Source: Streptomyces sp. NRRL S-646 (lineage in GTDB: Bacteria; Actinomycetota; Actinomycetes; Streptomycetales; Streptomycetaceae). Taken from it: 64,000 nt of DNA. The stretch spans positions 682,001 through 746,000 of the forward strand of contig NZ_JODC01000003.1 in the NCBI RefSeq assembly GCF_000720765.1, read 5' to 3'. The position numbers and the translations under genes were made by a program. Under the pieces are notes generated by a model, which was not told the origin of the DNA, did no database searches, and saw nothing but the letters and a program-made list of their open reading frames with translations. This document shows, in pieces, positions 2,166-41,968 of this stretch (position 1 is its first letter; each line of letters begins with the position of its first letter).

Positions 2166-3746
<1,581 letters not shown>

Positions 3747-3824
3747 GGGGTGCCTTCCGGCGGTCGGGCGGGGGTCTGTGGTTTCGATTCTAACGGGGTG
3801 CGGGATGGTCGCCTCCCGTCCGAT

Positions 3825-3898
3825 CTGGGGGCTGCGCCCCCAGACCCCCGCTTTCGGCCCGAACACGGCCTCGTCCTCAAACGCCGGACGGGCTGGTT
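3825..3898. repeat. Dispersed Streptomyces intergenic repeat, family A, copy 1
   Basis: A unit beginning CTGGGGGCTGCGCCCCCAG and ending ACGCCGGACGGGCTGG recurs, nearly identical and in the same orientation, at 41898-41968. Its first part is a GC hairpin and its last part includes GGCCTCGTCCTCAAACGCC. This type of unit is frequent between Streptomyces genes. Here its right end abuts the -10-like TATACT of the chorismate mutase leader, so it may contribute to that promoter. Confidence 0.75.
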
Positions 3899-3903
3899 AT
3901 ACT
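3898..3903 (+). promoter_or_regulatory. Candidate -10 element (TATACT) of the chorismate mutase leader transcript
   Basis: TATACT matches a vegetative -10 box at five of six positions. If its last base is -7, transcription would start exactly at the A of the leader ATG (3910), giving a leaderless message; no ribosome binding site precedes that ATG, which agrees. The -35 region falls inside the dispersed repeat and is weak. Confidence 0.5.
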
Positions 3904-3909
3904 CACCGC

Positions 3910-3981
3910 ATGCTCAAGATGGCGACCTTCCTCTTTACCTATGGCAACCGGCCCGCCGGCTGCCATGGTCGTGCTGCTTGA
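3910..3981 (+). CDS. Putative Phe/Tyr leader peptide of chorismate mutase
   Basis: A 23-codon frame starting MLKMATFLFTYGNR and ending in TGA. It places Phe, Leu, Phe, Thr, Tyr in succession (codons 7-11), using TTT and TAT, both rare in this GC-rich genome. It is followed at once by a hairpin and then by a rho-independent terminator before the chorismate mutase gene, the arrangement of a translational attenuator that senses charged tRNA-Phe and tRNA-Tyr, the end products of that branch. Known of the mechanism: classical pheA leaders work this way in enterobacteria. Inferred here: the role of this peptide. It is too short for ordinary gene callers. Confidence 0.55.
   Translation: MLKMATFLFTYGNRPAGCHGRAA
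3939..3968 (+). promoter_or_regulatory. Leader hairpin (pause/anti-antiterminator stem)
   Basis: The arm ATGGCAACCGG (3941-3951) pairs with CCGGCTGCCAT (3956-3966) with a single A/C mismatch and a CCCG loop; outer bases 3939-3940 add a further G-C and wobble pair. The stem begins at the Tyr codon of the leader peptide. The segment 3949-3955 (CGGCCCG) can instead pair with 4011-4017 (CGGGCCG) inside the terminator's left arm, a candidate antiterminator. Confidence 0.45.
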
Positions 3982-4001
3982 GCTACTGACAAGCGACTTC
4001 C

Positions 4002-4043
4002 CAGGCGCCCCGGGCCGACAAGGCCCGGGGCGCCTGTCGTTTT
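4002..4043 (+). terminator. Attenuator (rho-independent terminator) before chorismate mutase
   Basis: A perfect 15-bp stem, left arm 4002-4016 and right arm 4022-4036 (core GGCGCCCCGGGCC), with loop GACAA, followed closely by TCGTTTT. It lies between the leader peptide stop (3981) and the chorismate mutase start (4100). No complete gene ends just upstream on this strand, so it is best explained as an attenuator. Confidence 0.7.
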
Positions 4044-4099
4044 CCGGGTCCTGCCGCTCCGGGGCACCGCATCCCACCCACCCGACGAGGAGCCCCGAC

Positions 4100-4402
4100 A
4101 TGACCGTCACCGCAGCTGAGAAGAACGCCTCGGACAAGACCGGCGCCCGTACCACCGAGGCCGCCGACGTGATCACCGGTGCGCGGGAGCGCATCGACGC
4201 GCTCGACGACCGGATCATCGGTCTGATCCAGGAACGGATGGCCGTCTCCGCCGTCATCCAGGAGGCCCGCATCGCCTCCGGCGGGCGGCGTGTGAACCTG
4301 TCCCGCGAGATGGAGGTCCTCGGCCACTACAGCGAGGCCCTCGGCAAGCCCGGTACGCCCCTCGCCATGACGCTGCTCGAACTGTGCCGCGGTCGCATCT
4401 GA
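4100..4402 (+). CDS. Chorismate mutase (AroQ class)
   Basis: A 100-residue protein that rearranges chorismate to prephenate, the committed step toward phenylalanine and tyrosine. After a disordered 20-residue head comes the all-helical AroQ core: ITGARERIDALDDRIIGLIQ (about 25-44) holds the first active-site arginine and the IDALD motif, RMAVSAVIQEAR (about 46-57) follows, then the helix with SREMEVLGHY. The length equals a free-standing monofunctional mutase without a dehydratase or dehydrogenase fusion. The ATG at 4100 has a good ribosome site (GAGGAG, 4087-4092). It is preceded by the leader peptide and attenuator described separately, suggesting control by Phe and Tyr supply. Confidence 0.92.
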   Translation: MTVTAAEKNASDKTGARTTEAADVITGARERIDALDDRIIGLIQERMAVSAVIQEARIASGGRRVNLSREMEVLGHYSEALGKPGTPLAMTLLELCRGRI

Positions 4403-4898: not shown

Positions 4899-4932
4899 GA
4901 AGGGCCCCGCGGCCAAGTCCGCGGGGCCCTTC
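4899..4932. terminator. Transcription terminator downstream of the gene at 4950-6080
   Basis: A perfect 14-bp inverted repeat GAAGGGCCCCGCGG (4899-4912) / CCGCGGGGCCCTTC (4919-4932) with a 6-base loop, 17 bases beyond the stop codon of the minus-strand gene. Confidence 0.75.
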
Positions 4933-41897: not shown

Positions 41898-41968
41898 CTG
41901 GGGGCTGCCGCCCCCAGGCCCCCGCTTTCGGCCTGAACGGCCTCGTCCTCAAACGCCGGACGGGCTGG
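41898..41968. repeat. Dispersed Streptomyces intergenic repeat, family A, copy 2
   Basis: Begins CTGGGGGCTGCCGCCCCCAG and ends CGCCGGACGGGCTGG, the same unit and orientation as 3825-3898 with a few differences. It is downstream of the deacetylase gene, whose stop is at 41977. Confidence 0.75.

What the first reader, a model, noticed from the sequence alone, without database searches (positions are those of the whole stretch)
3898..4102. Leaderless Phe/Tyr leader peptide and attenuator before chorismate mutase
Seen: a -10-like TATACT placed so that transcription would start at the ATG of a 23-codon frame; codons 7-11 are Phe-Leu-Phe-Thr-Tyr with rare TTT and TAT; a hairpin starts at the Tyr codon; a perfect 15-bp terminator with a T run follows; CGGCCCG (3949-3955) can pair with CGGGCCG (4011-4017) to break the terminator. 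Known: chorismate mutase feeds Phe and Tyr, and classical attenuation uses such leaders. Inferred: a Phe/Tyr-sensing attenuator in Streptomyces; published Streptomyces attenuators that I recall concern trp and branched-chain genes.
Basis: partly seen in the sequence, partly recalled or inferred. Interest (0 to 1): 0.75.

Follow-up and report, generated by a model that had tools for sequence, protein, structure and literature searches.

The report
Phe/Tyr attenuator before chorismate mutase
A tiny leader gene carrying phenylalanine and tyrosine codons sits between the promoter and the gene for chorismate mutase, and most likely lets Streptomyces and many related bacteria switch on phenylalanine and tyrosine synthesis when these amino acids run short.

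Summary
A 23-codon frame (3910-3981) starts six bases after a TATACT -10 (3898-3903), so its mRNA is probably leaderless; a 15-bp terminator (4002-4036) follows, then chorismate mutase (4100-4402). Of 190 Streptomycetaceae chorismate-mutase loci, 189 hold the upstream region and all 189 have the leader; 187 match the strict core, with codon 9 TTT in 186 and codon 11 TAT in 185, although these codons are about 2% and 6.5% of usage. Motif and gene co-occur: 123 of 129 genomes with the gene, 0 of 71 others. Phe/Tyr leaders also precede the gene in 29 of 40 loci of other actinomycete families. No Rfam match; a 2005 survey found no RNA element before actinobacterial Phe/Tyr operons. The mechanism, ribosome-mediated attenuation, is classical, and C. 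glutamicum aroR is a close analogue; the target gene, the breadth and the fixed TTT were not found in the papers searched. All evidence is comparative; the model of the ribosome at the stop codon is inconclusive.

The parts
3876..3895 (+). copy of a genome-wide intergenic repeat (CTCAAACGCCGGACGGGCTG) lying where relatives have a conserved -35-like region
   Evidence: 80 exact copies in the own genome, 0 for the reversed control pattern; relatives at this place read GTCTCAnnATGCGAACCnnnTTGGAC
3898..3903 (+). -10 element TATACT; predicted transcription start at the A of the leader ATG
   Evidence: sequence; -10-like hexamer 6-7 bases before the leader start codon in 186 of 187 loci
3910..3981 (+). 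leader peptide frame, 23 codons plus TGA, no Shine-Dalgarno (leaderless)
3928..3930 (+). codon 7, TTC (Phe), auxiliary aromatic codon
   Evidence: TTC in 154 and TAC in 15 of 187 loci, never TTT
3934..3936 (+). codon 9, TTT (Phe), main control codon
   Evidence: TTT in 186 of 187 core loci
3940..3942 (+). codon 11, TAT (Tyr), second control codon, first base pair of hairpin A
   Evidence: TAT in 185 of 187 core loci; His in L176, Gln in L316
3939..3968 (+). hairpin A (regions 1 and 2), inside the leader frame
   Evidence: MFE fold; 96.8% of cells paired over 56 representatives
3949..3968 (+). antiterminator, 5' strand (loop and 3' arm of hairpin A), pairs with 4001-4017
   Evidence: nascent-RNA fold with ribosome on codon 9
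3975..3995 (+). apex hairpin of the antiterminator, spanning the leader stop codon (3975-3980 with 3990-3995)
   Evidence: sequence covariants in L029 and L147 seen
4001..4017 (+). antiterminator, 3' strand (overlaps the 5' arm of the terminator)
4002..4036 (+). intrinsic terminator hairpin, 15 pairs, followed by TCGTTTTCC
   Evidence: a stem of 10 or more pairs found in 187 of 187 loci; 98.8% of cells paired with changes on both sides in 5 of 13 pairs
4087..4092 (+). GAGGAG, likely ribosome binding site of chorismate mutase
   Evidence: sequence
4100..4402 (+). chorismate mutase gene (type II, 100 aa), the regulated gene
   Evidence: NF005894 123.6 bits over cut-off 73; PF01817

Best explanation
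This is a ribosome-mediated transcription attenuator that controls chorismate mutase by the supply of charged tRNA-Phe, with charged tRNA-Tyr as a probable second input. RNA polymerase starts at or next to the leader ATG (inferred) and a ribosome begins on the leaderless end (inferred). If tRNA-Phe or tRNA-Tyr is short, the ribosome stalls on TTT (codon 9) or TAT (codon 11) and holds the 5' arm of hairpin A; the freed loop and 3' arm of hairpin A pair, around an apex hairpin at the leader stop, with the 5' arm of the terminator, and transcription reads on into the gene. If both are plentiful, the ribosome passes, hairpin A re-forms behind it or the ribosome at the stop covers its 3' end, and the terminator forms. 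Shown here: anatomy, conservation, fixed control codons, alternative pairings in silico, co-occurrence with the gene. Inferred: start site, stalling, switching, which amino acid matters more.
For: Leader in all 189 of 189 Streptomycetaceae loci with upstream sequence (187 by strict core; L176 and L189 by eye). Codon 9 TTT 186/187, codon 11 TAT 185/187, codon 7 TTC 154 and TAC 15 of 187, never TTT; stop 14-18 codons after codon 9 in 187/187; -10 6-7 bases before the start in 186/187 although the number of codons before codon 9 varies from 6 to 11. Usage TTT 2.0%, TAT 6.5%. Strict motif in 123 of 129 genomes with the gene and 0 of 71 others (nine of the 71 have only distant chorismate-mutase matches). 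Antiterminator at a codon-9 stall: 55 of 55 representatives analysed (L167 of 56 left out because its terminator was mis-called) against 20% of 1100 spacer shuffles; 185 of 187 loci. Hairpin A plus terminator: 24 cells changed on both sides against 4.9 in shuffles, 0 of 500. Own partner strands pair better than swapped ones, 1 of 5000 permutations (not corrected for kinship). Phe/Tyr core in 29 of 40 loci of other families, all 29 with a TTT, 27 with an in-frame start and -10-like hexamer; antiterminator in 12 of 12 of those outside family f18 at the codon-9 offset.
Against: With the ribosome modelled at the stop codon the outer antiterminator pairs remain possible: on average 51% of the terminator arm, 117 of 187 loci at half or more, so the repressed state is not explained by masking alone. 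At equilibrium the terminator wins in every state in 55 of 55, only less so at the codon-9 stall (18.8 against 26.6 at the stop and 28.8 kcal/mol free); switching must be kinetic. Without any ribosome the antiterminator forms (six or more expected pairs) in about 30 of 56 nascent folds. Covariation of the antiterminator alone in one fixed register is weak (score reached by 82 of 500 shuffles); two registers exist. The U tract is short. The invariant F-x-Y-G is tighter than a leader needs, partly because the stem starts there. No expression data.
Confidence: 0.88

Rival explanations
1. Phe-only attenuator: Tyr at codon 11 is kept because its bases open hairpin A, and only tRNA-Phe charging is sensed.
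For: Rare TTT fixed at codon 9 (186/187) where no stem explains it; Phe kept in both leaders that lost Tyr (L176, L316); all 29 leaders outside the family carry TTT; C. glutamicum aroR is reported to ignore Tyr (PMC11802643 passages).
Against: Tyr is kept also where the codon is TAC rather than TAT (L174, L178, many leaders); codon 7 is Tyr in 15 of 187 loci.
Confidence: 0.35
2. A structured RNA element that binds a ligand or protein (riboswitch-like); the short frame is incidental.
For: Bases in and around hairpin A are nearly fixed; codon 10 varies only at its second base (ACC 179, AGC 5, ATC 3), as a stem constraint would have it.
Against: Start codon, spacing to the -10 and stop position are kept in frame although leader length varies; outside the family the RNA sequence changes but Phe-x-Tyr or Phe-Tyr stays; no Rfam match at gathering, best sub-threshold hit E 0.027.
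Confidence: 0.04
3. The frame makes a functional small protein and the terminator simply ends its mRNA.
For: The last residues are alike in most Streptomyces (RPxGCHGRAA).
Against: Several relatives read another frame after hairpin A with the RNA kept; other families have unrelated ends; the motif never occurs without the downstream gene.
Confidence: 0.03
4. Constant partial termination, not regulated by amino acids; the Phe/Tyr codons are chance.
For: Terminator favoured in all states at equilibrium.
Against: Fixation of rare TTT and TAT and the same codons in other families.
Confidence: 0.05

Closest known systems
C. glutamicum aroR leader before aroF (DAHP synthase), Neshat et al. 2014 (paper not held; seen only as described in the review PMC11802643, passages)
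   Same: Actinobacterial leader peptide with Phe-Tyr-Phe, ribosome stalling, aromatic amino acid synthesis
   Different: Regulates DAHP synthase, not chorismate mutase; reported to answer Phe but not Tyr. No such leader was seen within 500 bases before three DAHP synthase loci of the own genome
E. coli pheL-pheA attenuator (review passage in PMC11802643; details recalled)
   Same: Phe-rich leader, terminator against antiterminator, target carries a chorismate mutase domain
   Different: Ordinary ribosome binding site and a run of Phe codons (recalled); here leaderless, one or two Phe codons plus Tyr, and a stand-alone enzyme
Streptomyces trpL, leuL, ilvL and other leaderless leaders (S. lividans, PMC8079986, passages)
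   Same: Leaderless short frame with control codons, hairpins and often an intrinsic terminator
   Different: Eight leaders listed there (Ala, Ile, Thr, two Trp, two Leu, Met); none for Phe, Tyr or chorismate mutase (the word chorismate does not occur)
trp, cys, leu and ilv elements of Seliverstov et al. 2005 (PMC1262725; part 1 of 3 of the text and passages)
   Same: Comparative prediction of attenuators in actinobacteria
   Different: It states that no conserved RNA structures were observed upstream of phenylalanine and tyrosine operons
Leaderless polycysteine short frames of mycobacteria, Canestrari et al. 2020 (title in a reference list; paper not held)
   Same: Leaderless short frame acting as amino-acid sensor
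   Different: Cysteine; described as acting on translation in PMC13236596 (passage)

Membership tests
Ribosome-mediated transcription attenuator of an amino acid gene | Short translatable frame upstream with codons for the pathway's end product | tested here: met
   Phe at codon 9 in all 189 loci with upstream sequence
Ribosome-mediated transcription attenuator of an amino acid gene | Intrinsic terminator between leader and gene | tested here: met
   187 of 187 core loci have a stem of 10 or more pairs; U tract short
Ribosome-mediated transcription attenuator of an amino acid gene | Antiterminator that excludes the terminator and is released by a stall at the control codons | tested here: met
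   55 of 55 representatives analysed against 20% of shuffles; in silico only
Ribosome-mediated transcription attenuator of an amino acid gene | Ribosome at the leader stop prevents the antiterminator | tested here: inconclusive
   Half of the terminator arm can still pair in the model; 117 of 187 loci at 50% or more
Ribosome-mediated transcription attenuator of an amino acid gene | Expression responds to charging of the tRNA | not testable with these tools
   needs reporter or RNA-seq under limitation
Leaderless leader (actinobacterial) | -10 hexamer 6-7 bases before the start codon, no ribosome binding site | tested here: met
   186 of 187; start site itself not mapped
C. glutamicum aroR-aroF attenuator | Lies before a DAHP synthase gene | tested here: not met
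   target is chorismate mutase
Known Rfam RNA family (riboswitch, T-box, leader) | Reaches the gathering score of a family | tested here: not met
   0 matches in the window at gathering; 14 sub-threshold matches at E <= 5 in 3850-4150

The most novel reading that the evidence does not exclude
One ancestral attenuator, inherited with the chorismate mutase gene across the class, in which the ribosome starts on a leaderless end, reads Phe (always with a rare TTT) and Tyr one codon apart or adjacent, and decides between two hairpins; it would be the main Phe/Tyr sensor of the chorismate branch in Streptomyces and kin, lost in some lineages together with the gene or its neighbour context. The fixed U-ending Phe codon, next to a C-ending Phe codon two positions earlier, would mean that slow wobble decoding is part of the sensor.
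Probability: 0.5. Interest if true: 0.68.

Novelty: new member of a known kind. Interest (0 to 1): 0.6.

Why it matters
The published 2005 survey found no RNA control before Phe and Tyr operons in actinobacteria, and the eight leaders listed for S. lividans in 2021 include none for chorismate mutase. If true, chorismate, the branch point towards Phe and Tyr and also, by general knowledge, towards many antibiotics, has a simple cis switch in Streptomyces that can be cut out or retuned. The fixed TTT offers a clean test of whether codon choice, not only the amino acid, sets the sensitivity of an attenuator, and the leaderless start a test of how coupling works without a ribosome binding site.

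Tried and rejected
Rejected: a riboswitch or known RNA family; a functional small protein (frame shifts after hairpin A); a further copy elsewhere (pattern once in the own genome; one extra off-site match, in G132, among 200 genomes); a second Phe/Tyr/Trp leader before DAHP synthase (L311-L313) or prephenate dehydratase (L315) in the own genome: none with a leaderless -10 on the coding strand within 500 bases (L314 and tyrA not examined).

Led nowhere or only partly: the pattern with a fixed two-base gap missed the window itself and gave mostly coding chance hits outside the family. First terminator calls in other families picked wrong hairpins in several loci (15 of 29 formed the antiterminator); with corrected terminators 6 of 12 at offset 9 and 12 of 12 at offset 12 outside f18, and 10 of 17 in f18 at offset 9. 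In L267 the terminator arms were set by hand. The one-register antiterminator count was weak. All ten paper searches listed no paper that describes this element, by titles, starts of abstracts and the passages opened; the library lacks most subscription papers, so absence from print is not shown. In PMC1173090 a table of predicted attenuators was seen only in part.

Dropped before counts: L033 (contig end), L176 and L189 from the 187 core loci (the core pattern itself asks for Phe, a Thr/Ser/Ile codon, Tyr and GG); L167 from the 55. The 190 loci come from two genome sets that may share species; 56 representatives were used for structure counts.

Full report
What is there. On the + strand lie TATACT (3898-3903), six bases, and a frame 3910-3981 encoding MLKMATFLFTYGNRPAGCHGRAA*. 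TATACT is the only TANNNT on that strand in 3741-4099, and of 310 short ATG frames on both strands of the window only this one has a [TC]ATA[CA]T hexamer at leaderless spacing. The RNA 3910-4046 folds at z = -7.7. A 15-bp terminator (4002-4036) with tail TCGTTTTCC follows. The gene 4100-4402 is a stand-alone chorismate mutase (NF005894 and PF01817). The divergent gene on the left looks like guaA (recognised by eye, no call).

Conservation in the family. The core TT[TC]-(Thr, Ser or Ile codon)-TA[TC]-GG lies upstream of the gene in 187. L033 is a contig end; L176 reads F-S-H-G and L189 F-F-F-Y-G. A later locus, L316, reads F-T-Q-G. Among the 187: codon 9 is TTT in 186, codon 11 TAT in 185, codon 10 ACC 179, AGC 5, ATC 3; codon 7 TTC 154, TAC 15, other 18, never TTT; the stop comes 14-18 codons after codon 9; a -10-like hexamer lies 6 or 7 bases before the start codon in 186. 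In 39 long high-GC3 frames of the window TTT is 2.0% of Phe and TAT 6.5% of Tyr codons. Some relatives have indels after hairpin A that change the frame of the peptide's end but keep the RNA stem.

Co-occurrence. Among 200 genomes of the family, 129 outside genus g14 hold the gene and 123 of these hold the motif TTTANCTATGGN{2,4}CCGG. None of the other 71 does: 8 without any match and 63 of g14, of which 9 have only distant chorismate-mutase matches. I compared motif and gene positions by eye for those not fetched; they are adjacent. Of the 6 with gene but without the strict motif, G067, G020, G038 and G010 have variants (L174, L177, L178, L189), G031 and G011 lost Tyr (L176, L316). The own genome has one copy.

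Structure. Hairpin A (3939-3968) opens with the third base of codon 10 and the Tyr codon, which explains why codon 10 varies only at its second base and part of the constraint on TAT. Nothing in the stems explains TTT. Over 56 representatives (L167 left out, terminator mis-called) this happens in 55 of 55 against 20% of 1100 spacer shuffles, and in 185 of 187 loci with a codon-9 stall and 182 of 187 with a codon-11 stall. Hairpin A and terminator show changes on both sides beyond all 500 shuffles (24 cells against 4.9). For the antiterminator, own partners beat swapped partners in all but 1 of 5000 permutations (kinship not corrected), but a count in a single register is weak, because lineages use two registers.

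Results against. In the model with the ribosome at the stop, half of the terminator arm can still pair with the hairpin A region (mean 51%). At equilibrium the terminator is favoured in each state; the preference is 18.8 kcal/mol at the codon-9 stall, 21.2 at codon 11, 26.6 at the stop and 28.8 free (means of 55). The direction is right, but the decision must be kinetic, as is usual for attenuators (general knowledge). Without a ribosome about 30 of 56 nascent folds also show the antiterminator.

Beyond the family. In 29 a Phe-Tyr core followed by a hairpin precedes the gene: F-F-Y-G in f4 (genus g20), f35, f46 and f48, F-Y-Y-G in f37, F-Y-G or F-Y-Q in f18, F-Y-P in f12. All 29 carry a TTT; 27 have an in-frame start with a [TC]ANNNT hexamer 4-9 bases upstream, many with GTG starts. 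No such core was found on the gene's side in the other 11, all from f4 (the four distant matches there lie 379-496 bases away, two on the other strand). The antiterminator forms in 12 of 12 non-f18 loci at the codon-9 offset but in 6 of 12 when only 9 bases are masked, and in 10 of 17 f18 loci at that offset (controls 53 of 240 for the non-f18 set). f18 terminators are short and poor in U.

Comparison. The mechanism is that of trp, pheA and actinobacterial trpL or leuL leaders. The nearest known system is aroR-aroF of C. glutamicum, with Phe-Tyr-Phe, answering Phe but not Tyr (PMC11802643, passages; the original not held). Seliverstov et al. [quoted passage not shown] The S. lividans study lists eight leaders, none for this gene (PMC8079986, passages). 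Passages of PMC4633059 and PMC13236596 on mycobacteria do not mention chorismate. Rfam has no match. So it works like a classical attenuator, meets the features that sequence can test except the stop-codon state, and is a new member of that kind with an unusually wide spread.

The promoter in this strain. Most relatives with a CATACT -10 have TTGG[AC] or TTGAC within 30 bases upstream (91 of 146), often within GTCTCAnnATGCGAACCnnnTTGGAC. In the window that stretch is replaced by a repeat with 80 exact copies in the genome, and the -10 is TATACT. The three loci with TATACT (L001, L004, L037) all lack the upstream box, and L037 has a variant of the same repeat. Three loci are few, but an improved -10 in exchange for a lost -35 would fit.

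Noticed in passing
window 3876-3895 (second copy 41948-41967): A 20-base intergenic repeat with 80 exact copies in the genome sits right before the -10, where relatives have a conserved GTCTCAnnATGCGAACCnnnTTGGAC region; the three loci with a TATACT -10 all lack that region.
   Followed up: partly
187 core loci, about 25-45 bases before the -10: The upstream box GTCTCAnnATGCGAACCnnnTTGGAC looks conserved beyond a -35 element and may bind a regulator or belong to the divergent promoter.
   Followed up: no
genus g14 (63 genomes): This genus lacks both this chorismate mutase and the leader; nine genomes show only distant matches. Which enzyme replaces it is not known.
   Followed up: no
L176 (core about 100 bases before the terminator), L316: Two leaders have lost Tyr (His, Gln) but keep Phe, stem and terminator.
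   Followed up: partly
L252, L253, L282, L285, L286, L287, L288, L290, L292, L295, L296: Eleven f4 chorismate-mutase loci have no Phe-Tyr leader; L252, L253 and L288 share another conserved stretch near the gene (GGTCTG.TTC....TGAA) of unknown meaning.
   Followed up: no
window about 4901-4930: Strong inverted repeat GGGCCCCGCGG...CCGCGGGGCCC between chorismate mutase and the convergent frame, probably a shared terminator (read).
   Followed up: no
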